Source of the DNA: an uncultured Ruminococcus sp.
GTDB lineage: Bacteria > Bacillota > Clostridia > Oscillospirales > Ruminococcaceae
Length of the DNA: 64,000 bases
Assembly (NCBI GenBank): GCA_902780505.1
Contig: CACZFN010000002.1
Location: forward strand, 1 to 64,000
Reading direction: 5' to 3'
A program made the translations under genes and the position numbers. Below the pieces are notes generated by a model. The model ran no database searches. It saw only the letters and a program-made list of their open reading frames with translations, and had not been told where the DNA came from. This document shows positions 12,634 to 26,388 of the stretch, piece after piece; position 1 is the stretch's first letter, and each line of letters begins with the position of its first letter.

Positions 12634-13326
12634 TTAGCTTTTATTCCTTTTCACATAATTTACATAATCGGGATAAAGTCCCATGATTGAAGAACCTGCA
12701 TCCGTCCAAGCATCATTACAGCTAATTAAGTTTTCTAACATAATATTTGTCGATCTAATTAATGGAATTACTGTATCTTTTGTACCGTCCATATACTCTA
12801 CCTCAATTTTGGTTATCCATAAATAATAACACACTTTACTATATGCAGCTACATCTGATTTACTTACTATTGTAATGTAATTGTTCTTTGTTAATGGTCC
12901 TACACCTTGCCAAACATAACGGTTATTTCCTGTTATATCATCATATGCGGGATCTTTAACAGAATTCTCCATCTCAAAATAAAAATTACAATACTTTACT
13001 TCTTTTTCACCAATATATTTAAAAAAGCCTGTATATTGTAATCCCCCTACCGAGTTTTGACCTACAAAATAAAGATCACTTGATTCCTCATCAAACAATT
13101 GATCAAACTCAACATTTTGCTGTGCTGTTGTGGTAGTTGTAGCCTTTGTAGTAGTTGTTGTCGTAGTAGTCTCTGCTTGGGTAGTAGTTGTAGTCGCCGC
13201 AGTAGTCGTAGTCGTCGCCGCAGTAGCCTCACCACCATTATTACCTGTATTAGAAGTCTCACCACACCCCGTCAGACATCCAAACGACAGGAAAAAAGCT
13301 ATAGCAAAACATAATACTTTTTTCAT
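12634..13326 (-). CDS. Lipoprotein with Thr-rich linker
   Basis: 230 residues. Strong AAGGAGTTGGGG site before the ATG at 13326. A signal peptide ends in the lipobox LTGC, with Cys at about residue 21, so the mature protein should be lipid-anchored on the outer face. A Thr/Ala-rich linker (about 35-68) lifts a C-terminal domain of about 160 residues that contains YFVGQNSVGGLQYTGFFKYI and VKYCNFYFEMEN. That domain looks like a small beta-sandwich of the kind seen in Firmicutes lipoproteins, but I do not recognise a specific family. The gene is divergent from an XRE regulator and co-directional with the HEPN-like gene. Its promoter is overlaid with palindromic operators. Confidence 0.75.
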   Translation of the reverse strand: MKKVLCFAIAFFLSFGCLTGCGETSNTGNNGGEATAATTTTTAATTTTTQAETTTTTTTTKATTTTTAQQNVEFDQLFDEESSDLYFVGQNSVGGLQYTGFFKYIGEKEVKYCNFYFEMENSVKDPAYDDITGNNRYVWQGVGPLTKNNYITIVSKSDVAAYSKVCYYLWITKIEVEYMDGTKDTVIPLIRSTNIMLENLISCNDAWTDAGSSIMGLYPDYVNYVKRNKS

Positions 13327-14260: not shown

Positions 14261-17200
14261 TCAGTGATTGATCTTGATCTTTGGCTGATTGTTCTGATGA
14301 CCATATACCTCGATCTTCGGCTGATTATTCAACTCAACGACCGGTATATCATCCTTGATCGCCCTCAGATTACTGAATATAGTGTCAAACTTCGGGTTTG
14401 CCGCCCTGCCGCTTTTCTTGTTCGGATCGGGATATTTTGTAAGGCTCTTTCCGATCTCTTCTTCTCTATAGCCTGTCTTGCCATCTCTCTGTTCGTTAAA
14501 GCGGAGAGTTTTAAGCTCTTCTTTCTCCTCAGCGGTAGCGGTCTTTTTATTGACTTTTGCTGAAAGCTCAATGTATCTCGGCTTATTATGCATTTCATAC
14601 TGCTTTGATGTATTGAAACGTTCGGCTATATTCCTGTTCGCCTTATTTGCTGCCTTGAACTCGCTGATGAACTTCTTGGCGTATACAGGCTTTACGCCCT
14701 CGGTTTCAAATGTATAGCGGTCTTTATAGACATTCTCGAACTTAACGGAGAAGTCAGGGTTTATCGTACACTTTCTCGGCGGATATGTCGTGATGCCTGT
14801 ATAATACGCAAGTTCTTCCATCTGTCTGTTGACCTTATTATACATATCCACCATGCAGCGCTGGCGCATTTTTCCGAAGTCAGTTCCGGGCTTGTTCTTT
14901 TTGGTCAGATAATTCTCGATACGGTGCCTGAGCTTTTCATTCCTTTTCATAAGGCTGAAATAGAAGTTAGGATCCTCAGATGCAGGCGGCAGCTTGTCAG
15001 GAACAGGAAGTCCCTTTTCCCTTGCAAGATTCTGTGCAAATTCAAGCCTTTCCCTGCGTTCTTTCCTGATGAACTCAGCTGCCTCCTTGTTATTTTCAGC
15101 ATATGCCTGCCTGTTTGCAAGGTACTTCTTCTCCTCATTCATAAGCAGAGGCAGCTTATCAGCCCAGTCACTTATATCCGCAGCTGTTTCCATTACCTTC
15201 ATGTATTCAATGGAGTCACCGCTGATATTCTTATGCCAGCCGTATTCCTGTGAACGATCCTTATCCATAGCGTTTGCATCTGTAAGCAGAGTTTTGGAGT
15301 GGCGAAGCATTCTTTCAAGCTCCATATTCTGGAACACTGCATCGGATCTGGAATTATCTATAAGGAATGCTTTGTCAAGGCCTGCTCCGCGTTTTTCATC
15401 CTTCACTCCGAGGAACTGTGCATTGGTCTTATCTTTAAGTGCTTCATGACACGCCTTCGGCATAGCTGCGATTGTATCAAAAATATTAACAGGCTCGACC
15501 TTATCTCTGTCCCTGAAACTTGCTTTATTTCTTGCAATAGCAAGGTCGTCCATGTGTATATTCTTGAATTCTTCATCACTTACTACACGGATATACCCTT
15601 TTTCGACCTTGAATCCGCCGGGAACTATATTGCCCTCCTCGTCCCTGATATCCTCAAACTTATGGTCCTTGGAAAGATCGACCTGCAAAAGTATACCATT
15701 AACACGGTGCATGAAAGCTTCCCTGCTCTTTTCGGGGAGTTTTTCAAGCAGTTCCTTTTCCTTTGGCATAAACTGGCCCTTTTTCCAGCGTCTTAGTTCG
15801 CTCTCCATCTTTTCGCTGATTATAAGCATATCCTCGGGGTTTGTAAGCAGGGCTCTTTCCTCCTCGCTTATATCCAGTCCTCTTGCAAACGGCACATCAT
15901 CAGTGAAAGCGCCGCCTATACCCTGCACCTCGGGCAGATACCTGCCCTTTGAATCTGTTTTCTGCGTATCTATCTGGAACCTGATACGGATATCATCGGG
16001 CTTACGCTTCTTGATACCCATTAAGTAGTCCATTACCTGAAGGTCAGCTGCATTCTTTAAGACCTGCGGCTTGTTGAATGAGTTATAGTCACGGCTTGCC
16101 GCAGATGTGAATGCACTGTATGTGCCGTTTTGTATCCTGCGCTTTAGTTCCTCTTTACGCTGTTTAAGAAAATCACTCATTTCCTTCTCGGTCTTGCCTT
16201 TAAGATACTCGTTATTTACGACATCATTTCTCAAACGGCCGCCAAGCTCGCCGACAAAGTCACTTGAGCGGAAATTCTTTGTCGTTGTATAGAAGGACGG
16301 TCTGAAGATCTGATCGTTTTTGGACTGCTTTGAGGTAACATCGTAGTTAGGCTGCATCTCGCCTATCTGGATAACAGATACCTGATCGAACTTTGCCTTT
16401 CCTCCCGCAAGGGGGATCTTCGACTCGCCCTTCATTTTTGCTGCAGGAAGCAGGCCTTCCGAGCCCATGCCGAGAGAGAGCTCATAAGCGAACTCTCGTG
16501 CGTGCCCCTCGTTATAGCCGGCAGGCACATTCTTCATCCTTGCATCCTCACAGAAGCCCGCGTTGTAGAGGTTTCTGTTAAGCTGCTCTATGAACTTTGC
16601 AAGGTCGGGATCCATATCCTCAAAATCTCTTTCAAACTGCGTAAAGAAGCCGCCCTTGCCGTCCTGTGTGTTATAGAAATCAAGGTTTCCGCTCGGGCTT
16701 ACAGGCTTCCTGCCGCCCTTGCCGTCATCACTGTAGAGTATATGCTCGTCGATAGCCTTGCGCATATACTCCTCAACATTGACAGTGACCTTTTCTCCTG
16801 TCAGGGGATCGGTAAGCTTTACCTCCTTGATATTCTGCGGCAGGTTGAGGATAGACTTGTTGAAGATCTTCATAAAGTTTTCATGGTCCATATGGGTAGC
16901 AAACTGGTAGATATTATCGTTGACACCCGTCTGCTTTTTAAGCAGGTCATATTCCTTTAGGCTGTCAAGCTTTCTCTTGCCGCCCTCCCACTTGATCTTT
17001 GCAGCGTTTTTCTCAAATTCATATGCAGCGTCGATATCCTTCTTTGCATTCATCATTGAAAGAATATGTGTAACGCGGGGGGACTTATGATCCTCAAAGA
17101 GATACTGAGGAAGCAGCGTGCCGTTTTTTATATGCTCCTTACAGCTCATAGCATACTCGTAGAAAGCGGCGTTTTCCGCACCTTGACGCTGCTGTGCAGG

Positions 17201-19108
17201 GGTATTGTTATAATTTGTTATCTCATCAGTAAGTGTATTTTCGTTTTCATCAAGAAGGTAGCCCAAAAGTATGAACTTGCCTGCTGCACGGGCAGATACT
17301 GCCTTGAGGTCTTCAAAGAATTCCTTTTCGCCCTCTGCAAACTTCGCATTTTTAGCGACTCTTTTATCATAATCACGAATGAATTCATTGGCATTCAGGT
17401 AAATATTCTTGTAGCTCTCATAAAGTGCCTTGAGCTGCTCCGGCTTTACAGGGTTTACCGTATCCTCTCCGAGATCTGCCGAATGTTTGAATACATCTGG
17501 GATTATCTCCTCGGTCAGCTTTCTGACAGACTCTTTCACCTCACGGTAAGCGTTTGATGCATTTGTATATGCCTTGCCGCCCTTATTCATAGCCTTGCTT
17601 TCGATCTCGGCGCCGCGGCGCTTGAGGGAATCAACATATCTTAAAAAGCCCGCATGGGCATCGGGGTTCATCCTGCCCTGTAATTCATAGAGCGAGAATA
17701 CCTTTGTATCCTTGTCTATGTTTTCTCCGCCGTAGTTTTCAACATATTTGCGCGTCTGATTGAGTGCCGATGAGGTATAGCTCACCGCTTTACGTGCTTC
17801 CTCGACCGTATCCGACACAAGCTCGGCAGTCTTATTTGCCTTCAGAGGACGAACGAAACGTGAAGCCTGAGATTCAAAATCAATAAGCTGATTGAACATA
17901 GACTCCATCTCGGCATCGCTCATCATGTGGGCGTCCTTATTATTAGGATCAAAGCGTTCTGCTGTGATTGTTGCTATATTTACGGCAAGCCTTTTAAGTT
18001 CACGCAGCTCATTATGCATATTCCTGGTGATCGTCTTGCCGGTGCTCAGGGTATATGACATATTCTCGGGTATATCATTCTCGTTTATACCGAGAACGGC
18101 GATAATATTATTAAGGAACGGCACTTCCTTATAGCCCGGATCGTTATCTATCACCTTTTGGAACATGAGCTGATCCTGATTTTTGTATCCCTGATCCTGC
18201 ATATCCTGCTCGATCTTCTGTTCTTCCTCCTTGCGGTACACCTGTGTACGGTATTCCCACTCAGCCCACTTATTTGCGGTTGCCAAGGTAGTAATAGCGT
18301 TGAGGTCTGTCTGAAGGTCTTCGCTTGTCTTGTTAACTATTGCTTCAAGCTTTTCAGCCGCATCAGCATTTACCTTGCGGAGATTTTCAACAGCGATCTT
18401 ATTCTCTGCTATAAGCATACCCACATTCTGTGCAAGCGGGGCGATAGGATCGGCGCTGTTTATCTTGCTTCTTGAATCGGCATCAAAAAGGTTATCGTTA
18501 TAGAACACAACGATATGGCTGATAGACCTTGCAGCAGCGTGCTGATCCTCAAGGCTCATCGCGCCGTTGTTAGTAACAGCTATAAGGTTTGCATTGAGGT
18601 GATTCATAAGCTCTGCGGTCTTTGCATCGAGCTTTTTCTCATTTACAAGCTGATTGGCGCGCTGCAATGCATAATATGAATTATTCGTATATCTGTCTAT
18701 ATCAGACCTCAGCACGCCTTCATGCATAGCCTTGCTGTTGTTTGCTATATTTGTAACAAAATCATCGGCAGTTATCCTGAAAACACCGTTTCCGGGTTTT
18801 GTGCCAATTGTGTTAAGCTTTGCGGAAAGGCGCTCACCTATAGCGTTTATATTGGCAAGGCTTTCATTTTCCTGCGCGTTTTTAGGATCCCCCCCGAATG
18901 CCTTATCATATGCATCAAGGTATTCCTTTATATCGCCATAGATATCCTGACGTTCGTCCTGAGTGGTGAGCTTATGGTTATCGTGAAGCAGGCCCCCGAA
19001 AGCTTCCGCCTGCTGTATGAGAAGTTTGAATATCGCATTCTCTGATTTATTGTTCTTTTTCAGGTCCTTAATATAGCTGCTAAGCTGTCTGAAAGAAATA
19101 TTCGGCAT
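14261..19108 (-). CDS. Giant cytosolic protein of unknown function (family member C)
   Basis: 1,615 residues, start behind AATAAGGAGAGG. No signal peptide and no membrane segment; Lys/Asp/Asn-rich and largely helical. The N-terminus (SSYIKDLKKNNKSENAIFKL) matches the pattern of the neighbouring 484-residue protein (QRYITLANEGKTSELAVLLI), and both carry a later D-PG(Y/F) motif (VIDNDPGYKEV near residue 322). Residues about 870-1070 have a faint kinase-like layout: GHAREFAYELSLGMG, LQVMDYLMGIKKRKPDD where kinase-like folds keep a DRHxxN-type loop, and VQGIGGAFTDDVPFA where they keep a metal-binding Asp. If real, it is probably a pseudokinase. The C-terminus has a repeated NNQPKI. I do not recognise the family. 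It has its own shared-type promoter and forms an apparent three-gene regulon with the two genes upstream. Confidence 0.8.
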   Translation of the reverse strand: MPNISFRQLSSYIKDLKKNNKSENAIFKLLIQQAEAFGGLLHDNHKLTTQDERQDIYGDIKEYLDAYDKAFGGDPKNAQENESLANINAIGERLSAKLNTIGTKPGNGVFRITADDFVTNIANNSKAMHEGVLRSDIDRYTNNSYYALQRANQLVNEKKLDAKTAELMNHLNANLIAVTNNGAMSLEDQHAAARSISHIVVFYNDNLFDADSRSKINSADPIAPLAQNVGMLIAENKIAVENLRKVNADAAEKLEAIVNKTSEDLQTDLNAITTLATANKWAEWEYRTQVYRKEEEQKIEQDMQDQGYKNQDQLMFQKVIDNDPGYKEVPFLNNIIAVLGINENDIPENMSYTLSTGKTITRNMHNELRELKRLAVNIATITAERFDPNNKDAHMMSDAEMESMFNQLIDFESQASRFVRPLKANKTAELVSDTVEEARKAVSYTSSALNQTRKYVENYGGENIDKDTKVFSLYELQGRMNPDAHAGFLRYVDSLKRRGAEIESKAMNKGGKAYTNASNAYREVKESVRKLTEEIIPDVFKHSADLGEDTVNPVKPEQLKALYESYKNIYLNANEFIRDYDKRVAKNAKFAEGEKEFFEDLKAVSARAAGKFILLGYLLDENENTLTDEITNYNNTPAQQRQGAENAAFYEYAMSCKEHIKNGTLLPQYLFEDHKSPRVTHILSMMNAKKDIDAAYEFEKNAAKIKWEGGKRKLDSLKEYDLLKKQTGVNDNIYQFATHMDHENFMKIFNKSILNLPQNIKEVKLTDPLTGEKVTVNVEEYMRKAIDEHILYSDDGKGGRKPVSPSGNLDFYNTQDGKGGFFTQFERDFEDMDPDLAKFIEQLNRNLYNAGFCEDARMKNVPAGYNEGHAREFAYELSLGMGSEGLLPAAKMKGESKIPLAGGKAKFDQVSVIQIGEMQPNYDVTSKQSKNDQIFRPSFYTTTKNFRSSDFVGELGGRLRNDVVNNEYLKGKTEKEMSDFLKQRKEELKRRIQNGTYSAFTSAASRDYNSFNKPQVLKNAADLQVMDYLMGIKKRKPDDIRIRFQIDTQKTDSKGRYLPEVQGIGGAFTDDVPFARGLDISEEERALLTNPEDMLIISEKMESELRRWKKGQFMPKEKELLEKLPEKSREAFMHRVNGILLQVDLSKDHKFEDIRDEEGNIVPGGFKVEKGYIRVVSDEEFKNIHMDDLAIARNKASFRDRDKVEPVNIFDTIAAMPKACHEALKDKTNAQFLGVKDEKRGAGLDKAFLIDNSRSDAVFQNMELERMLRHSKTLLTDANAMDKDRSQEYGWHKNISGDSIEYMKVMETAADISDWADKLPLLMNEEKKYLANRQAYAENNKEAAEFIRKERRERLEFAQNLAREKGLPVPDKLPPASEDPNFYFSLMKRNEKLRHRIENYLTKKNKPGTDFGKMRQRCMVDMYNKVNRQMEELAYYTGITTYPPRKCTINPDFSVKFENVYKDRYTFETEGVKPVYAKKFISEFKAANKANRNIAERFNTSKQYEMHNKPRYIELSAKVNKKTATAEEKEELKTLRFNEQRDGKTGYREEEIGKSLTKYPDPNKKSGRAANPKFDTIFSNLRAIKDDIPVVELNNQPKIEVYGHQNNQPKIKINH

Positions 19109-19167
19109 AATAACCTCTCCTTATTCATTAATTTAGGCAGTCCGGCAAAGCAGACCGTCCTGAGCGT

Positions 19168-19204
19168 TCTATAATTAATACCCCCCCAAAAAGCGATCGG
19201 GTGC
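19168..19204 (-). promoter_or_regulatory. Shared promoter-like motif before the 1,615-residue gene
   Basis: On the minus strand, GCACCC (19199-19204), exactly 15 nt, then GGGTATTA (19176-19183) followed by ATTATAGAA. The same motif at the same spacing precedes the two sister genes. GGGTAT resembles the -10 of the sigma-B/sigma-F class, not sigma-A. Confidence 0.65.
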
Positions 19205-19253
19205 ATTTTTATGAATATTTTTTTACTGCATCATTCCACACTTGAAAAAGAAA

Positions 19254-19285
19254 AGGCAACACCGCATGATTATGCGGTATTGCCT
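19254..19285 (-). terminator. Terminator of the 484-residue gene
   Basis: Minus-strand stem AGGCAATACCGCAT / ATGCGGTGTTGCCT (14 bp with one G-U) and a 4-nt loop, then TTTTCTTTTTC. Its GGCAAYACCGCA sequence recurs in several palindromes of the window. Confidence 0.85.
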
Positions 19286-19309
19286 ATACGGTCTGTGATA
19301 CAGTGCAGC

Positions 19310-20764
19310 TTATTTCAATGCGGGACCGTTATTGACGATGACTTTTTCGTTTGCGTTATCATTTACATTATTCTGAGCTTTATCCTTCAGACCTGCAAGC
19401 TCTTTTGATGCTTTTGAAAGCTCACTTATAACAGCCTTTGCAGTCGGTGAGAGCGCCTTCTTTGCAAGCTTGACAGCATCTATCCTTGCAAGCTGCTTCT
19501 GCTCGTTTGCTATCGTCTTGGATATGGCGCAGGAGGGCAGCTTTTTGGCAAGCGTTTCTAACTTAGGAAGGTGTTCATCTCTGAGGTCTTTTATTGTTTC
19601 GTCAACAAATTCGTCATGCTCGGTGAACGGAAAAGAATCAGGATCATAGATCTTATCTACCCTTTTTGAATGGGCATCTGCTTTATCTAAGGTATCCTTG
19701 ACAGCCTTAACTACTTTGTCAGGAAATATCTCATTTGTCTTTACTACCCTGACCTTGTCTTCTTCAAGTTGTAAGTGTACCTTGAATCCATCTGTTCCAA
19801 GCCTTGTCAGATTCCTGAGCGAGCCACTGAAGGCTTTATATATCTGATTACCCTTGATCTCATCTATATTGCCGGATCCTTTTATATCATCAAGGTGACC
19901 ATTTGCCTGGGTAACAAGTTCTCCTGTAAGGCGCTGGAATTCCTCTGCGTTTTTAAGCGTTTCGAGATGCTTCTGTCTTATTTCGTCAAGCTGCTCGGCT
20001 GTCTTTGCTTTCATGATCTCGTCAAGATAGTTTGGCAATTTATAGAATATCGGCTTATCGGGGGAATACTCGTAATCCTCCTCAACTTTAAAGCTATACG
20101 AGGCAGTCGCCGGCTGAGGGTTATCACCGAACATTTTATGAAACTGACGTATTTCATCAGCCGTCACTTCTGTGTGCTGCTTGTATATATCGCCTACAAA
20201 CGGCACATCCAGAATATCCCTGTTAATGAGGATGATTTTATCTGAAAATTTCTGGTATTCAGGTGTTTTTACTTCATCATTCCATTTCTGGCCGGAGTTT
20301 TCAAGAATTGATTTAAGGCCTCCATTGAGCTGGTTTGCCCATGTCAGTTTTTTACCCTCTACTGTCTTGCAAAGCGCCATATCATGTGCGAGAGCATCGG
20401 AAAAGCCGGGATCATCAATGATATTTGCTTCCTGTATCTCGCCGTCAGCCACACGCTGTTTCCATTCTTTGTACTTCTTGCCTGTTTCTATTACCGCGTT
20501 TGAGCGTATTCTGGCAAACTCCTCCGAGAGCTTATAAACGATCTCCTTCTTTGCAGGATCTATCTCACCCTCCGGTGTAAGCTCGGCAAGATGATTGTAA
20601 AATGCCGAAACAGTATCTCCTATACTATCGGCCTCCTCATTGTTGCGGCCTTCCAGAACAGGCAGCTTTGAGTGATTATTGATAAGCAGCACTGCAAGCT
20701 CGGAGGTTTTGCCCTCGTTTGCAAGCGTTATATATCTTTGCAGCATTTCCTGATTAACAGCCAT
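19310..20764 (-). CDS. Cytosolic helical protein of unknown function (family member B)
   Basis: 484 residues, start behind TAGGAA. No signal peptide or membrane helix; highly charged, consistent with helical bundles. The N-terminal segment (LQRYITLANEGKTSELAVLL) parallels the start of the 1,615-residue neighbour, and a D-D-PGF motif (NIIDDPGFSDALAHD, about residue 119) matches the D-PGY motifs of both neighbours. The middle part contains TPEYQKFSDKIILINRDI; the C-terminus is a long helix ending in an Asn-rich tail (NNVNDNANEK). No catalytic motif is visible. It is flanked by its own GCAC(C/A)C-N15-GGGTATTA motif and its own terminator, so it is a separate transcript of the same regulon. Confidence 0.75.
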   Translation of the reverse strand: MAVNQEMLQRYITLANEGKTSELAVLLINNHSKLPVLEGRNNEEADSIGDTVSAFYNHLAELTPEGEIDPAKKEIVYKLSEEFARIRSNAVIETGKKYKEWKQRVADGEIQEANIIDDPGFSDALAHDMALCKTVEGKKLTWANQLNGGLKSILENSGQKWNDEVKTPEYQKFSDKIILINRDILDVPFVGDIYKQHTEVTADEIRQFHKMFGDNPQPATASYSFKVEEDYEYSPDKPIFYKLPNYLDEIMKAKTAEQLDEIRQKHLETLKNAEEFQRLTGELVTQANGHLDDIKGSGNIDEIKGNQIYKAFSGSLRNLTRLGTDGFKVHLQLEEDKVRVVKTNEIFPDKVVKAVKDTLDKADAHSKRVDKIYDPDSFPFTEHDEFVDETIKDLRDEHLPKLETLAKKLPSCAISKTIANEQKQLARIDAVKLAKKALSPTAKAVISELSKASKELAGLKDKAQNNVNDNANEKVIVNNGPALK

Positions 20765-20804
20765 GATAAATTCCTACGTCATTTATGTTTTTTGCATTCA
20801 TACA

Positions 20805-20833
20805 TAATACCCCCGTGCCGCCCGAATGTGTGC
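20805..20833 (-). promoter_or_regulatory. Shared promoter-like motif before the 484-residue gene
   Basis: On the minus strand, GCACAC (20828-20833), 15 nt, GGGTATTA (20805-20812), then TGTATGAA. Same spacing and core as before the two sister genes. Confidence 0.65.
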
Positions 20834-20846
20834 ATATGAAAAAAGC

Positions 20847-20883
20847 AAGGCAATACAGCACGCATATCGCACTGTATTGCCTT
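20847..20883 (-). terminator. Terminator of the 787-residue gene
   Basis: 12-bp stem AAGGCAATACAG / CTGTATTGCCTT; on the minus strand it is followed by GCTTTTTTC. It belongs to the same hairpin family as 19254-19285. Confidence 0.85.
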
Positions 20884-20904
20884 AAAATAATTATCTTCCG
20901 ATCA

Positions 20905-23268
20905 TCACATACCAAACTTTACAGGCGGCTTTTTCATTTCAAGTTCAGGTGCTTTCTTCTCCCTGATCTTCTCGATCGCCTTTTCCTTGCCGACCTTGAT
21001 ATGTGCCTCGCCGAGCTTAGCCATAAGCCCCTTGCCGTTCTTGACTGTTGCGGCGTTTATCAGGTCATCAACAGAGTTATCCTGCATCATGCGCTGGAAA
21101 TCGTCACGCTCTATGATAGCTTTCATATGTGTCTGTACATCCATACTAAACAAGCTGGAGTTGTCGATCTCCTTGATCTGACCGCTTTTTATAGCCGATT
21201 CGTATTTGTTATTGACTGTCTTTATAGCAATTATCTTTGCAAGATTCTGAGCGACCTGCTGCTTTGCTACAAATTCCTCCATCGGCGACGGATTTTTGTT
21301 GGCTTGGCGCATCTGTTTGTGCTCATTAAGTTCTGCCACGGTCTCCTTGTACTTGTTATCAAAGTCATTTTTATTATTTATGTTTTCTATCTGCGTGCGC
21401 TGTTCTTCAAGTGTCAGCTCCTCAGTAATAAGCTCAGGGGCAATGCTCATAGCGAGCTTTTCTATAGCAAGAGCGCCCTTGTAGCGATCCTTGCCCATAT
21501 CCGAGGAAGGCTCCCACCCCTGCTTGCCGAAGTTGCTCTTTGCGACCTTTTTCTGGTAAGCGATACTTGCCTTGTAGGCTTCAACTGCTGCCTGCTGATA
21601 TTCGGGGCTGTCCTTTATATCGCCGCTTAAATGGTCAAAACTACAGTATATTTCCTTCAGGTCAAGCATCTTTTCCCTGAGCGTCCTTATCTCAGCCGAA
21701 TCCTGGTGGCCTGACTGGAAAATGCTCTTGGGCGTTGAACTTAGAAGCTCGATATTCTCGTTGAAGGAGTTGACCGCTTTCAGGTTTGCATCATACGTTG
21801 CACTGATATTATTGGCAATATCGATCTTTTCCCTGTAGCCGGGGCTGTCAATGATAGGTCCCTTTGTGTAGTCATACTCTTCATTGAGCTGTTTAAGATC
21901 GGCATATACCGCCTTCAGCATAGCCTTTGTTTTATCAAACTCAGGGGCGGTATCAGCATCAAGTTCCTTGATCTTTTCACCGAAATACTTTGCGTTTTCA
22001 AAGCAGACAGCATGGCTCATGTCGCGCTCGACCTTTTCCATCTGCTTTTTGTAGGAATCTCCTGACTTTGTAAGCTTATCTGAAAGCGTTGTATCAAGCG
22101 GCATTGTATCCTTAAATATTTCAAATGATATATTATTTGCATTATCAATGGCTTTGGATAATTCTTTATTGTCCTTAGCCTCTACTATCTGCTTATACTC
22201 GGGCAGTTCCCTTAAAAGCGGCAGGTATTTTTCTTTCAGCTTCTCGGTAGTTCCATTGATATAGTATGTGTCGAGAGGGGAAACATAGTTATTCTCGAGC
22301 GCATTGATAGAATCCATATAGGAGCCGGCTGATGCTTTTTTACACAGTTCTCTCTCCACAGGATCCTTGGATCTACTGGAAAAGCCGTTGAATGTATCAA
22401 TAAGGTTGCCGCCTTTTTTCAAGCCGGGCGCATAGCTGTCGGCATATTTTTTGCCGATTTCATGTGTATCATTATATACCATGTCGGTACTGTTAAAGTC
22501 ATAATACTCGGTATTTGAGAGCATTCTGCCAAACAGGTAATCCTCAGCTGCCTTTTTACGCTCCTCGCTGTTTGCCGGCGGGGGGTTATTTGAAAGCAGC
22601 TTATCTTCAACGGGTGCAAATTCATCATATGCCTTGATCTGCTCACCGGCACTTTTTAGCTTTGCTTTTTCCGTATCAGTGAAATTGCTTGCAAAATCAA
22701 CATTAGGGTTATCGAGCAATTCACCGAGAATGACCGACATTTCGTAGGAGCACCTGCCCTGTGAGTGATGAGAATCCTTAAGGGAAACATGGTCAAGGTG
22801 GTGGTTCTTTGCGTGGTCGGCAAGTGTTTTCAGGTGCTTGTTGACAAGCGACTTGTCGCCGTTCTGGTAAGCGATAAGTGCCTTCTGAGCTTCCTTTCTT
22901 GAATCCACAAGAATATCGGAAAAGCCCCTTGATCTTGCATCACTGACGGTGATGTTCGTATAGTGGAACGCCTGATTGAACAGAGTCATATCACCGCCCG
23001 AACTTGAATCTGTCATATTCTTGCTGTAGTCATACTTTTCCAGATCCATAGCAGCACCCATAGCTACCATGGCAACTATCTCGGGTGTCAAGCCCTCGGG
23101 CACGGGAAGCTCGATGCTGTTATATTCTTTGGCGGCATTAGGTTCAACGTGTACGTCATTTCCGAATTCATCTACATACCCCTTAACGACCTGTCCTTTG
23201 GGGCCGTATACATTTAAAATCTTATTTTTTCTTTCCTGTGATACAGCGCTTATCTGTGGGTTTGGCAT
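20905..23268 (-). CDS. Cytosolic helical protein of unknown function (family member A)
   Basis: 787 residues starting MPNPQISAVSQERKNKI, set by AAGGAGGAAAAAAAT; the frame is open upstream to 23346, but that part overlaps the promoter motif. There is no signal peptide or membrane helix. An N-terminal domain (about 10-190) has mixed character, with VYGPKGQVVKGYVDEFGNDV and a His-rich stretch KNHHLDHVSLKDSHHSQGRC that could bind metal. The rest is helical, with two related motifs, IIDSPGYREKI (about 476) and IKDSPEYQQA (about 556), echoing the D-PG(Y/F) motif of both downstream genes. The C-terminus is Lys/Pro-rich. First gene of the three-gene set. Family not recognised. Confidence 0.75.
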   Translation of the reverse strand: MPNPQISAVSQERKNKILNVYGPKGQVVKGYVDEFGNDVHVEPNAAKEYNSIELPVPEGLTPEIVAMVAMGAAMDLEKYDYSKNMTDSSSGGDMTLFNQAFHYTNITVSDARSRGFSDILVDSRKEAQKALIAYQNGDKSLVNKHLKTLADHAKNHHLDHVSLKDSHHSQGRCSYEMSVILGELLDNPNVDFASNFTDTEKAKLKSAGEQIKAYDEFAPVEDKLLSNNPPPANSEERKKAAEDYLFGRMLSNTEYYDFNSTDMVYNDTHEIGKKYADSYAPGLKKGGNLIDTFNGFSSRSKDPVERELCKKASAGSYMDSINALENNYVSPLDTYYINGTTEKLKEKYLPLLRELPEYKQIVEAKDNKELSKAIDNANNISFEIFKDTMPLDTTLSDKLTKSGDSYKKQMEKVERDMSHAVCFENAKYFGEKIKELDADTAPEFDKTKAMLKAVYADLKQLNEEYDYTKGPIIDSPGYREKIDIANNISATYDANLKAVNSFNENIELLSSTPKSIFQSGHQDSAEIRTLREKMLDLKEIYCSFDHLSGDIKDSPEYQQAAVEAYKASIAYQKKVAKSNFGKQGWEPSSDMGKDRYKGALAIEKLAMSIAPELITEELTLEEQRTQIENINNKNDFDNKYKETVAELNEHKQMRQANKNPSPMEEFVAKQQVAQNLAKIIAIKTVNNKYESAIKSGQIKEIDNSSLFSMDVQTHMKAIIERDDFQRMMQDNSVDDLINAATVKNGKGLMAKLGEAHIKVGKEKAIEKIREKKAPELEMKKPPVKFGM

Positions 23269-23303
23269 ATTTTTTTCCTCCTTAAATTTATCGCTTTCAT
23301 AAG

Positions 23304-23332
23304 TAATACCCTCTCCCCTGCCCTTTGGGTGC
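23304..23332 (-). promoter_or_regulatory. Shared promoter-like motif before the 787-residue gene
   Basis: On the minus strand, GCACCC (23327-23332), 15 nt, GGGTATTA (23304-23311), then CTTATGAA. The third occurrence of the motif. Confidence 0.65.
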
Positions 23333-23518
23333 AATAATATAAACATTTTCTCTTTGCCGTATAATTATCTGTTTTTACGCCTTTTATAAAGGTATATACA
23401 TTATTATAATATTTCTTAACCCCGCAGCCTGACCGGAGCAAGCCGCGTGATGTTGATTTCCATATTCTTTTATTCTCCCTGCACCCGATAATATGACGGA
23501 TACCCATATAGAAATTTT

Positions 23519-24314: not shown

Positions 24315-25703
24315 ATGAAACCGATTAGATTTTATTTCGCACTTGTATGCGGAAAGTTGACTATAGCGGTATTAAAGCTGTTCCGTAAGCGTGCCACGAA
24401 CTTTCCGGGTTCGGTCGTTCTGACACTGTGCCCGAAGTTTTTAAAGTATATCGAAAAGCCCGGGAAAATCATCGCTGTAACAGGCACAAACGGCAAAACG
24501 ACTGTCAGCAATATGCTGCTTGATATACTTGAAGACAACGGCTATGACTGCACCAACAACAACTTCGGCGGGAATGTCGATACGGGCATTTGTGCAGCGC
24601 TTCTTAAAGACAGTACAGTTACGGGCAAGGCAAAAAAGAAATACTGTGTTCTTGAAATAGATGAACGCAGTGCAGCAAAGATATACCCGTATCTTGAACC
24701 TGATATCCTTATAGTCACGAACCTGACACGCGATTCTTATAAAAGAAACGCCCATGTTGAGTACATATTCAGCATTTTGGACAATAACATACCCGATAAG
24801 ACACATCTTATACTCAACGCTGATGACCTTATAAGTTCATCACTTAAAAAGAATAATAAAAGGACTACCTTCGGTATGCAGCCGTTTGAAGGGGAAGAAC
24901 TCGTTGATAACATTGTGCGCGATATCAACGCCTGCCCTGTGTGCAGTGCACCGCTTGAATACAGCTTTCTGCGCTACAACCATATAGGGCGTGCCAAATG
25001 CTCGGTGTGCGATTTCTGCTCGCCTGTGCCCGATTTTGATGTGACATCCAGAACGCTTACAGGTGACGGCCACGCGGATATGACGATAGCACACGGCAAA
25101 ACTATCGAAAAATACAACGTCCCCTGTGAAAACACTATAAACCTTTACAACGCTGTAGCTGTTATAACGGCGCTCAGAGTATTCGGGCTTGAACAGCAGC
25201 AGCTTGAAAAGTCCTTCAAAAGGATACAGGTAGTAAGGTCAAGATATGATATAACAGAGGAAAACGGCCGTGTTCTGAGGTGCATTATGGCAAAGGGACA
25301 GAACCCTGTTGCCTGCTCACATTCTTTGAAGATCGCAAAGGACACGCCTGACTGCGCTATAATTCTTTTGTGGGATGATTTCTATGACAGGAAGGAAACA
25401 TCTGAAAATACAGCATGGTACTATGATGTCGATTTTGAATTTCTTGTAAACGACAATATCAGGCAGATAATCGTTGCAGGAAAGCGTTCCCCCGATCTGC
25501 TTCTCAGGCTGCTGATCGCAGGGATACCCGAAGAAAAGATAAAGACCACCGAACAGGAGGCTGATGCGGCGGCACTGCTAAGCCTTGAAAGCATAAAGAA
25601 TATCTATATATTCTTTGATATGTACGAAGACCAGTACAAGGAAATGCTCAAAGTGAAAATAAAGGAAATGATGAAAAATGCAGATCGAAGTGCTATACCC
25701 TGA
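24315..25703 (+). CDS. murT: MurT-like Mur ligase (lipid II isoglutaminyl synthase subunit)
   Basis: 462 residues. MurT with GatD amidates the alpha-carboxyl of D-Glu in lipid II at the inner membrane face. Seen here: the Mur ATP-binding loop GTNGKTT (57-63), central domain motifs LNADDLISSSL and ENTINLYNAVAVI, and a MurT-specific Cys4 zinc ribbon CPVC...CSVC (about 207-233). The C-terminal DUF1727-type region includes NTAWYYDVDFEFLV, where MurT usually supplies an Asp to the amidotransferase triad. The ribosome-binding site is weak. The last 26 nt overlap gatD, indicating translational coupling. The ligase half looks intact, unlike its partner. Confidence 0.88.
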   Translation: MKPIRFYFALVCGKLTIAVLKLFRKRATNFPGSVVLTLCPKFLKYIEKPGKIIAVTGTNGKTTVSNMLLDILEDNGYDCTNNNFGGNVDTGICAALLKDSTVTGKAKKKYCVLEIDERSAAKIYPYLEPDILIVTNLTRDSYKRNAHVEYIFSILDNNIPDKTHLILNADDLISSSLKKNNKRTTFGMQPFEGEELVDNIVRDINACPVCSAPLEYSFLRYNHIGRAKCSVCDFCSPVPDFDVTSRTLTGDGHADMTIAHGKTIEKYNVPCENTINLYNAVAVITALRVFGLEQQQLEKSFKRIQVVRSRYDITEENGRVLRCIMAKGQNPVACSHSLKIAKDTPDCAIILLWDDFYDRKETSENTAWYYDVDFEFLVNDNIRQIIVAGKRSPDLLLRLLIAGIPEEKIKTTEQEADAAALLSLESIKNIYIFFDMYEDQYKEMLKVKIKEMMKNADRSAIP

Positions 25704-26388
25704 ACAGTGTAACCTTTTCGGTGATTCGGGGAATATAAGATACCTTAAAAAATGCCTTCCTGATGCTCAGTTCATCAACACTTCTCTCCATGATATACCC
25801 GCATTTGTTACGGGCAGCCCTGATATGATATACATGGGGGCGTGCACTGAAAGCGATCAGGAAAAGATAATACGCTGCCTAACCCCGTTTAAAAATGAGC
25901 TTAAAACTATGATAGACAGCGGCACAGTGATGCTTTTTACGGGCAATGCGCCTGAAGTTTTCTACAAATATATAGAAAAGGACGATAGATCACGGATAGA
26001 ATGTCTGGGGCTGTTTGATTTTTATACAGAGCAGCGGTTGTTTGAGCGTTACAACTCCCTTGTGCTTGCAGAATTTGACGGGCGTGATATAGTCGGTTTT
26101 AAGACACAGTTCACACAGGTCTACGGCGACAACAGCAGCATCTACTTTTCAAAGGTCAAACGTGGTTCGGGTATAAACAAGGATTCAATGCTTGAAGGGA
26201 TACACGTTGGTAATTTCTTTGCTACAAGCCTTGTGGGGCCGTTTCTGGTCATGAACCCGTATTTTACCGAGCATATTATGGCGTTGCTCGGGGTAAAAGA
26301 ACCCAAATGTGCCTTCAGGGAACAATCAATAAAGGCATATAATGACAGGATAGAGGATTTCAAGACCTGTAAGTGTGTAACAGAATAA
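25678..26388 (+). CDS. gatD: GatD-like glutamine amidotransferase lacking catalytic residues
   Basis: 236 residues, overlapping murT. The framework of GatD/CobQ-type class I amidotransferases is clear: QIEVLYPEQCNLFGDSGNIR, DMIYMGACTESDQEK and VYGDNSSIYFSKVKRGSGIN. Two key places differ from the family. The nucleophile elbow, normally (I)CGGYQ, reads LFTGNAPEVF (about 86-95), with Thr for Cys. The catalytic His segment, normally T-x-L-HGP, reads ATSLVGPFLVMNP (about 181-193), with Val for His. As read, it should not hydrolyse glutamine. It may use free ammonia, act as a structural partner of MurT, or have a new role. The gene assignment is good; the activity is doubtful. Confidence 0.8.
   Translation: MQIEVLYPEQCNLFGDSGNIRYLKKCLPDAQFINTSLHDIPAFVTGSPDMIYMGACTESDQEKIIRCLTPFKNELKTMIDSGTVMLFTGNAPEVFYKYIEKDDRSRIECLGLFDFYTEQRLFERYNSLVLAEFDGRDIVGFKTQFTQVYGDNSSIYFSKVKRGSGINKDSMLEGIHVGNFFATSLVGPFLVMNPYFTEHIMALLGVKEPKCAFREQSIKAYNDRIEDFKTCKCVTE

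What the first reader, a model, noticed from the sequence alone, without database searches (positions are those of the whole stretch)
14261..23332. Three-gene set of large unknown cytosolic proteins under a shared unusual promoter
Three consecutive minus-strand genes (787, 484 and 1,615 residues) have no recognisable function, no signal peptide and no membrane helix. All carry a D-PG(Y/F) motif after an Ile (IIDSPGY, IIDDPGF, VIDNDPGY). The last two also share an N-terminal pattern (YI-L---K-SE-A). Each is its own transcript with its own terminator, and each has the same promoter-like motif at identical spacing. That makes them a co-regulated paralogous set, which is what an undescribed intracellular system would look like. 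Existence and co-regulation are seen in sequence; the biological role is unknown.
Basis: partly seen in the sequence, partly recalled or inferred. Interest (0 to 1): 0.75.

Follow-up and report, generated by a model that had tools for sequence, protein, structure and literature searches.

The report
Gram-positive type IV secretion effector genes
These three genes look like part of a scattered set of proteins that certain gut Ruminococcus bacteria switch on together with, and probably export through, a type IV secretion machine, something hardly known in Gram-positive bacteria.

Summary
The three genes and their shared upstream site are real, but are members of a larger regulon. The site (TGCACCC-N15-GGGTATTACTTA) lies in 46 stretches of a collection of 84,980 species, all in Ruminococcus or other Clostridia records; in 61 sampled genomes only the genus (7 of 7) has it and the reversed control has none. 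It also precedes an ECF sigma gene heading a chromosomal type IV secretion operon (pilin-like, VirD4, VirB4). In one genome sigma factor and -35 box differ together. Of 65 complete regulon proteins, 47 (A and B included) end in an undescribed ~70-residue domain plus a 15-34-residue N/Q/P/K-rich tail; the domain is in 3 of 119 family genomes, those with the close VirD4. Best explanation: substrates (effectors) of a dedicated T4SS without relaxase in its operon, recruited by C-terminal domain and tail much as XVIPCD or BID signals are. C shares promoter and tail composition, not the domain. The D-PG(Y/F) motif and the "paralogous set" do not hold; "co-regulated undescribed system" does. Export, targets and activities are inferred. 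It bears directly on whether Gram-positive T4SSs deliver proteins.

The parts
20905..23268 (-). Gene A, 787 aa, almost entirely helical predicted protein; proposed T4SS substrate
   Evidence: ORF; 88% orthologue in G005 and 43% relatives under the same promoter; AF2 mean pLDDT 77.8, pLDDT under 50 at 773-787
23300..23333 (-). Regulon promoter-like site of A (TGCACCC-N15-GGGTATTACTTA)
   Evidence: exact match
21430..21762 (-). 110-aa module of A (residues 503-613), found in 22 regulon proteins; predicted helical bundle
   Evidence: iterated profile; structure comparison (not conclusive)
20968..21180 (-). Shared C-terminal domain of A (residues 697-767)
20908..20967 (-). C-terminal tail of A (residues 768-787), mostly predicted disordered
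   Evidence: pLDDT under 50 at 773-787; tail composition test
20846..20884 (-). Terminator-like hairpin after A
19310..20764 (-). Gene B, 484 aa, shortened member of a large family (orthologue 911 aa in G001)
20801..20834 (-). Regulon promoter-like site of B (one mismatch in the -35 block)
19373..19477 (-). Second half of the shared C-terminal domain in B (residues 430-464); the last 58 aa of B match the C terminus of a protein with a dissimilar body
19313..19372 (-). N/K-rich C-terminal tail of B
19254..19285 (-). Terminator-like hairpin after B
14261..19108 (-). Gene C, 1615 aa; same promoter, no shared C-terminal domain detected
19172..19205 (-). Regulon promoter-like site of C
   Evidence: exact match
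14264..14338 (-). N/Q/K-rich C-terminal tail of C (last 25 residues)
   Evidence: listed; orthologue has a similar tail

Best explanation
A, B and C belong to a dispersed arsenal of large cytosolic proteins transcribed by a dedicated, self-activating ECF sigma factor. That sigma factor is the first gene of a chromosomal type IV secretion (T4SS) operon without a relaxase: ECF - VirB2-like pilin - surface protein - VirD4 coupling ATPase - membrane protein - VirB6-like - VirB3/VirB4-like ATPase - STAS protein - very large surface protein. When the sigma factor is active, machine and substrates are made together. The ~70-aa C-terminal domain and its 15-34-residue N/Q/P/K-rich tail are then recognised by VirD4, and the protein is fed through the T4SS to the surface or into a neighbouring cell. 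Shown by sequence: the regulon, the operon, the shared domain and tail, and their co-occurrence. Inferred: that the ECF factor reads the motif, VirD4 recognition, export, and the target. As no linked immunity gene was seen and several sister genomes come from the rumen, my guess for the target is a eukaryotic neighbour (ciliate or fungus) rather than bacteria; that part is weak. C is included on its promoter and tail only.
For: (1) Regulon: 8 exact sites in the genome, reversed control 0 (with up to 3 mismatches 47 against 9). In 61 sampled genomes, 7 of 7 of the genus and 0 of 54 others have sites, control 0 in all. 46 stretches in 84,980 species, all Ruminococcus, Ruminococcaceae, Clostridia or Clostridiales records. 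Of 105 distinct sites, 65 precede cytosolic ORFs (64 of 250 aa or more, 1 cut by the stretch end), 10 the ECF gene, 8 a 71-84 aa family, 6 membrane or secreted proteins, 16 other or short. (2) Sigma and machine: in 12 of 12 ECF loci examined the site (at most 1 mismatch) abuts the ECF start, and T4SS-type genes follow as far as the stretch reaches. Pfam names ECF sigma, VirD4 (5e-51) and VirB4 P-loop in G000. In G000 a second pilin plus surface gene elsewhere has its own sites. (3) Co-variation: in G003 the sites of the ECF gene, of 3 of 3 domain genes and inside virB4 read [TC]GCAACC, and its ECF alone has P where the other 11 have S at the start of the region 4.2 helix. (4) C terminus: domain in 47 of 65 complete regulon proteins (profiles trained on the same set); controls 0 of 65 reversed, 0 of 650 shuffled, 1 of 245 internal. 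Tail 15-34 aa in the 46 measured. Tail N/Q/P/K 0.398 against 0.206 in 218 other genes (p=3.5e-20) and 0.240 in the proteins' own bodies (the residue set was chosen after seeing tails). B's C terminus matches that of a protein with a dissimilar body. (5) Domain-first test: 31 of 41 domain genes have the promoter against 18 of 193 others, 13 of the 18 being ECF genes, C and its orthologue, or relatives of the set. (6) Co-occurrence: domain in 3 of 119 family genomes, the three with VirD4 at 87% or more, and in 5 of 5 further genus members.
Against: No export, binding or expression data. C lacks the domain, so it rests on promoter and tail. No fixed linear motif in the tails exceeds shuffles (9 against a shuffle maximum of 9). 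G004 (58% complete) has 11 domain matches but no VirD4 or ECF orthologue found. G003 also has a TGCACCC site with a 17-nt spacer before no long ORF. Other ECF proteins nearly as diverged (72%) keep TGCACCC. Two diverged T4SSs (G069, G109) lack the motif and the ECF orthologue, and their held stretches show only one weak, K-rich domain hit (E 0.001, G069). 10 of 41 domain genes have no promoter of that score. Six of 105 sites precede membrane or secreted proteins, which do not fit a T4SS substrate. Relaxase genes exist elsewhere in G000, G005, G006 and G101, so mobilisation by this T4SS is not excluded. No catalytic domain or clear fold was found.
Confidence: 0.74

Rival explanations
1. The proteins belong to the same ECF regulon but stay inside the cell, for example as scaffolds, chaperones or envelope-stress proteins made alongside the T4SS.
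For: No long hydrophobic stretch in 73 of 80; six sites precede membrane or secreted proteins, so the regulon is not purely substrates; C has no C-terminal domain.
Against: Repertoires differ between genomes and are partly broken; one conserved C-terminal domain followed by a tail of narrow length range sits on varied bodies; a C terminus has apparently been exchanged; the domain is absent from 116 of 119 family genomes, the three with it having the close VirD4. Housekeeping scaffolds would not be expected to show this.
Confidence: 0.13
2. The T4SS is a conjugation machine (a decayed or split integrative element) and the regulon proteins are accessory proteins of DNA transfer, or proteins co-transferred with DNA.
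For: VirD4 and VirB4 are of the conjugative type by Pfam; PF03432 relaxases lie about 25-30 kb away in G000 and G005.
Against: No PF03432 relaxase in the operons of G000, G005, G006 or G101, none on the 30.5-kb and 31.3-kb T4SS contigs of G006 and G101, and none in G069 or G109, which have related T4SSs but are 64% and 88% complete. Only PF03432 was searched. The window genes lie on another contig than the T4SS in G000; in G005 the A and C orthologues are about 1 Mb from it.
Confidence: 0.1
3. They are T4SS-delivered toxins against other bacteria, like the X-Tfe effectors of Xanthomonadales (a variant of the best explanation that differs in the target).
For: Anatomy like X-Tfes: dispersed genes, C-terminal recruitment domain, Q-rich end, decayed fragments.
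Against: 23 of 28 regulon genes checked have no same-strand ORF within 150 nt downstream; the five that do are followed by another regulon gene (2), an HD-domain protein, a 333-aa ORF and a 72-aa ORF (other strands and upstream neighbours not checked). No peptidoglycan-, lipid- or nucleic-acid-degrading domain in 58 members by Pfam.
Confidence: 0.25
4. The motif is an operator or RNA leader read by another regulator of the operon (for example the response regulator with HTH_3), not the promoter of the ECF factor.
For: The two blocks contain ACCC and GGGT half-sites that could form a dyad; a histidine kinase and a response regulator lie at the end of the operon in G000.
Against: The 7 + 15 + -10-like layout resembles ECF promoters (general knowledge, no call); no sigma-70-like site lies within 200 nt upstream of the three starts; the -35 block differs together with the ECF region 4.2 in G003.
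Confidence: 0.1

Closest known systems
X-Tfe effectors with XVIPCD of the Xanthomonadales X-T4SS (PMC6536674, passages read)
   Same: Genes dispersed over the chromosome, a common C-terminal domain with a Q-rich end that binds VirD4, decayed effector fragments occur
   Different: Gram-negative; XVIPCD about 120 aa; effectors have X-Tfi partners; here about 70 aa plus a tail, no Pfam match seen, no immunity partner seen, Gram-positive, ECF-linked
Bartonella Beps with BID domain plus positively charged tail (PMC6509941, abstract read)
   Same: Bipartite signal: helical domain plus C-terminal tail
   Different: No Pfam match seen in 58 members; different phylum; tail here rich in N/Q/P/K
Streptococcus suis 89K island T4SS secreting SspA-1 (PMC12857230, section 22 read)
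   Same: Gram-positive T4SS proposed to export protein
   Different: Encoded in a pathogenicity island, one substrate named in that section; here many co-regulated candidates with a shared C-terminal domain
Conjugative T4SSs of Bacillota elements
   Same: VirD4 and VirB4 ATPases, VirB6-like protein by size and position
   Different: No relaxase in the operon, own ECF sigma gene and a dispersed regulon
ECF sigma factors that regulate their own gene
   Same: Sigma70 regions 2 and 4, site directly before its own gene
   Different: -35 TGCACCC and -10 GGGTATT, unlike the ECF consensus I recall; regulon is a secretion system and its candidate substrates

Membership tests
ECF sigma factor (regulator of the set) | Sigma70 region 2 and region 4 in a protein of about 160 aa | tested here: met
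   Pfam Sigma70_r2 and r4_2 over cut-off in the G000 and G005 proteins
ECF sigma factor (regulator of the set) | Recognises the shared promoter | tested here: inconclusive
   Site at its own start in 12 of 12 loci and joint change in G003; no biochemistry
Type IV secretion system | VirD4/TraG coupling ATPase | tested here: met
   PF02534 5e-51, PF12696 2e-31
Type IV secretion system | VirB4 ATPase | tested here: met
   PF19044 over cut-off in both pieces searched (1e-10, 4e-7)
Type IV secretion system | VirB2, VirB3, VirB6, VirB8 components | tested here: inconclusive
   Assigned by size, hydrophobicity and gene order only; no Pfam match
Conjugative element | Relaxase in the T4SS operon | tested here: not met
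   Nearest PF03432 about 25-30 kb away in G000 and G005, none on the short T4SS contigs of G006 and G101; other relaxase families not searched, G003 not searched
XVIPCD effector | XVIPCD sequence domain at the C terminus | tested here: inconclusive
   No such Pfam match in 58 members at E<=0.001; whether this Pfam copy holds an XVIPCD model was not checked
XVIPCD effector | Paired immunity protein | tested here: inconclusive
   23 of 28 have no same-strand ORF within 150 nt downstream; other positions not checked
BID-domain effector | BID domain | tested here: inconclusive
   No such Pfam match in 58 members; no PDB sequence relative of the domain below E=0.07
T4SS substrate (functional) | VirD4-dependent export | not testable with these tools
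   needs experiment
Paralogous family of A, B and C | Detectable homology of all three | tested here: not met
   C has hhalign probability of at most 1.3% with all but its orthologue; A and B share the C-terminal domain

The most novel reading that the evidence does not exclude
A clade of Ruminococcus, several members from the rumen, carries a dedicated, chromosomal, protein-injecting type IV secretion system with its own sigma factor and a dispersed arsenal of effectors (3-24 matches per genome in the eight genomes counted) marked by a new C-terminal translocation domain, aimed at eukaryotic neighbours such as ciliates or fungi: the first such effector arsenal in a Gram-positive commensal.
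Probability: 0.35. Interest if true: 0.95.

Novelty: new variant of a known kind. Interest (0 to 1): 0.85.

Why it matters
[quoted passage not shown] suis 89K system as apparently the first (PMC12857230, section 22 read). Here a sigma regulon ties a T4SS to a large set of candidate substrates that share a C-terminal domain. That makes the question testable: motif and domain predict the substrates, and one carrier, Ruminococcus sp. FC2018, is a genome record not labelled a MAG. It would also give a function to a large body of unannotated proteins in a fibre-degrading gut genus (the last point is general knowledge).

Full report
OBSERVATION. The three minus-strand ORFs exist as described, with A starting at 23268. 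No curated family matches them above its cut-off. The upstream motif is present with equal spacing at all three. Terminator-like hairpins follow A and B, but none was listed on that strand after C. No sigma-70-like site lies within 200 nt upstream of any of the three starts. The D-PG motif and the B-C N-terminal pattern do not hold up as signatures.

THE REGULON. The pattern TGCACN{10,25}GGGTATTANNTA has 8 exact matches in the 2.82-Mb genome and 0 for the reversed control; with up to three mismatches to the fixed-spacing form there are 47 matches against 9 for the control. In 61 genomes of the genus, family and order the pattern is found in 7 of 7 of the genus (1-17 sites each) and in 0 of 54 others, control 0 throughout. 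A stricter form scanned against 84,980 species gave 46 stretches, all in records titled Ruminococcus, Ruminococcaceae, Clostridia or Clostridiales; three of the assemblies name sheep rumen, goat omasum and water deer rumen, and one record is Ruminococcus sp. FC2018. That scan has no reversed control. Viral contigs gave 0. Over the 91 sites with a 15-nt spacer, conservation is near 2 bits at TGCACC and GGGTATTA, largely built in by the search, and near zero in most of the spacer. Of 105 distinct sites with at most one mismatch, 65 precede cytosolic ORFs (64 of 250 aa or more, 1 of 150-249 aa cut off by the end), 10 an ECF sigma gene, 8 a 71-84 aa protein family, 6 membrane or secreted proteins, and 16 short, broken or other ORFs.

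THE REGULATOR AND THE MACHINE. The ECF gene (Sigma70 regions 2 and 4) starts right at a site with at most one mismatch in 12 of 12 loci examined: G000, G005, G006, G101, G003, and the records behind L100, L104, L117, L118, L122, L123 and L134. It heads an operon whose products in G000 include a small pilin-like protein, VirD4 (PF02534 5e-51), a membrane protein, a VirB6-like protein, a VirB3/VirB4-like ATPase (PF19044 in both pieces searched), a STAS protein and a very large surface protein. In G005, G006 and others a surface protein lies between pilin and VirD4. Outside G000 the genes were recognised by likeness in size, order and sequence ends, not by Pfam, and several stretches end before VirD4. 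In G000 that surface-protein gene, with a second pilin gene, sits on another contig behind its own sites (one exact, one with two mismatches), next to another regulon gene. In G005 the operon lies on a contig of 3.56 Mb, so it is chromosomal there. PF03432 relaxases are about 25-30 kb away in G000 and G005, not on the short T4SS contigs of G006 and G101, and not found in G069 and G109.

JOINT CHANGE. Other ECF proteins of these genomes are at most 34% identical to the query, the orthologues 71-100%, so orthology is clean. The G003 orthologue is the most diverged of 12 (69% to that of G000; the next are 72%). At the start of its region 4.2 helix the Ser of LQ[KR]S[VTA]NTVKS is Pro; the other 11 have Ser. 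In G003 the sites before the ECF gene and before all three genes with the C-terminal domain, and a site inside virB4, read [TC]GCAACC; one more G003 site, TGCACCC with a 17-nt spacer, precedes no long ORF. Elsewhere TGCACCC dominates (97 of 105, a count biased by the search pattern); a search started from TGCAACC found only three further TGCAACC sites in the other nine genomes. This is the best evidence that the ECF factor reads the motif; it remains inference.

THE SUBSTRATE-LIKE PROTEINS. 80 ORFs of 250 aa or more behind sites with up to two mismatches were collected; 67 form one BLAST network. They include orthologues from related genomes, so they are not independent. 61 of 80 start with Met-Pro. 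Bodies are varied. Window B matches at least 14 others at hhalign probability 100% and is a shortened copy (911 aa in G001). Window A belongs to a group of 11 used for folding and carries a 110-aa module found in 22 proteins. Window C matches only its G005 orthologue, 88% over its full length. Models of A and of the intact B-family member L111 are almost entirely helical, with low-confidence C termini, and have no significant PDB match.

SHARED C-TERMINAL DOMAIN AND TAIL. Profiles started from the C termini of A and of L111 converge on the same domain (hhalign 99.2%, 6e-20) and hit 47 of 65 complete proteins (32 and 43, 28 in both), each at E<1e-3. These profiles were iterated on the same 65 proteins, so the count is not independent. 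In the 46 where it could be measured the remaining tail is 15-34 residues, median 21.5. Controls: 0 of 65 reversed, 0 of 650 shuffled, 1 of 245 internal segments. Of 454 other C termini, 6 (ctA) and 10 (ctB) are hit at E<1e-3; those I looked at are further large cytosolic proteins or gene fragments of this kind. The 18 without a hit include C and its orthologue, six membrane or secreted proteins, truncated or masked ORFs, and some divergent ones. Tails are N/Q/P/K-rich compared with 218 control genes (0.398 against 0.206, p=3.5e-20) and with the proteins' own bodies (0.240, p=5.5e-14) (53 non-redundant tails; the residue set was chosen after seeing tails). No fixed linear motif stands out. The last 58 residues of window B match the C terminus of a protein with a dissimilar body (36% over 58, 49% over 37; E 8e-6 and 3e-9), as if this part were exchangeable.

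CROSS-CHECKS. Starting from the domain rather than the motif, 31 of 41 domain genes have a promoter score of 12 or more near the ORF start, against 18 of 193 other genes (Mann-Whitney 6e-13). The 18 are 3 ECF genes, C and its orthologue, 5 regulon proteins of the same kind below the domain cut-off, 3 truncated or broken members (one gene counted twice), 2 of unclear kind, and 3 membrane or secreted proteins. The domain profile was trained on motif-defined genes, so only the newly found loci are independent. Ten domain genes, several of them fragments, have no such site. Across 119 family genomes the domain is found in 3 (matches: G000 12, G005 24, G101 3), the three with VirD4 at 87% or more (the two samples have the same size and the handles shown agree, but not all rows are listed). 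It is in 5 of 5 further genus members (13, 20, 4, 11 and 19 matches; some genes match twice) and, in an order-wide sample of 394, in G000 plus one discounted hit. Against: G004 (58% complete) has domain genes but no VirD4 or ECF orthologue found. Two diverged T4SSs (G069 69%, G109 66% VirD4) lack the motif and the ECF orthologue, and their held stretches show only one weak, K-rich domain hit (E 0.001).

MECHANISM. Most likely the ECF factor switches on machine and substrates together; VirD4 binds the C-terminal domain and tail; the T4SS exports the protein. This works like XVIPCD effectors (passages read) and BID effectors (abstract read), but membership in either is not established: no Pfam match was seen and no immunity partners were found (23 of 28 regulon genes have no same-strand ORF within 150 nt downstream). 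That, and the rumen samples among the sister genomes, make a eukaryotic target my preferred but weak guess.

NOVELTY. Section 22 of PMC12857230 (read) calls Gram-positive effector-translocating T4SSs a long-standing question and describes S. suis 89K as apparently the first. The rows listed by my searches hold no paper on this system; for four of these nine searches and for 103 only part of the matches was listed, and most subscription papers and preprints are not held. I rate it a new variant of a known kind: a T4SS with an apparently unreported sigma regulon and candidate signal domain in a Gram-positive gut genus.

Noticed in passing
L074:14878 (-), L155:1743, L159:7683, L185:16631: A copy of the promoter-like site (1-2 mismatches) lies inside the virB4 coding region in four genomes and has the G003-type -35 in G003; it may be an internal promoter for the STAS and surface-protein genes, or follow from conserved codons.
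   Followed up: partly
L076:6048-8953 (G000 contig C3): Second copy of the pilin gene with a surface-protein gene outside the T4SS operon, behind two copies of the site.
   Followed up: yes
L077:4609-4929 (-), L118:4318-4539 (-), L122:4545-4793, L134:3743-3988: A 71-84 aa protein family, behind the site or directly after the ECF gene or a regulon gene; possible partner, anti-sigma factor or small substrate.
   Followed up: partly
L084:4810-6375, L101:2249-3841 (-), L102:4299-5888 (-): Proteins with a signal-like N terminus under an exact site in three genomes, not fitting the substrate pattern.
   Followed up: no
L090:4088-5537 and L090:9734-11807 (G005): The gene pair beside the window's set (window 24315-26388, MurT/GatD-like by recall) also lies near a regulon site in G005, there with a broken B-family relative; A and C orthologues are elsewhere in G005 (L086).
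   Followed up: partly
L153:1833-12260 and L154:13287-15470 (G109): Large proteins flanking a diverged T4SS without the motif, several with N/Q/P/K-rich tails; possibly another substrate set.
   Followed up: partly
window 12634-13326 (-): Protein with a lipoprotein-like N terminus and a long Thr-rich low-complexity stretch.
   Followed up: no
regulon ORFs: 61 of 80 regulon ORFs of 250 aa or more start with Met-Pro.
   Followed up: no
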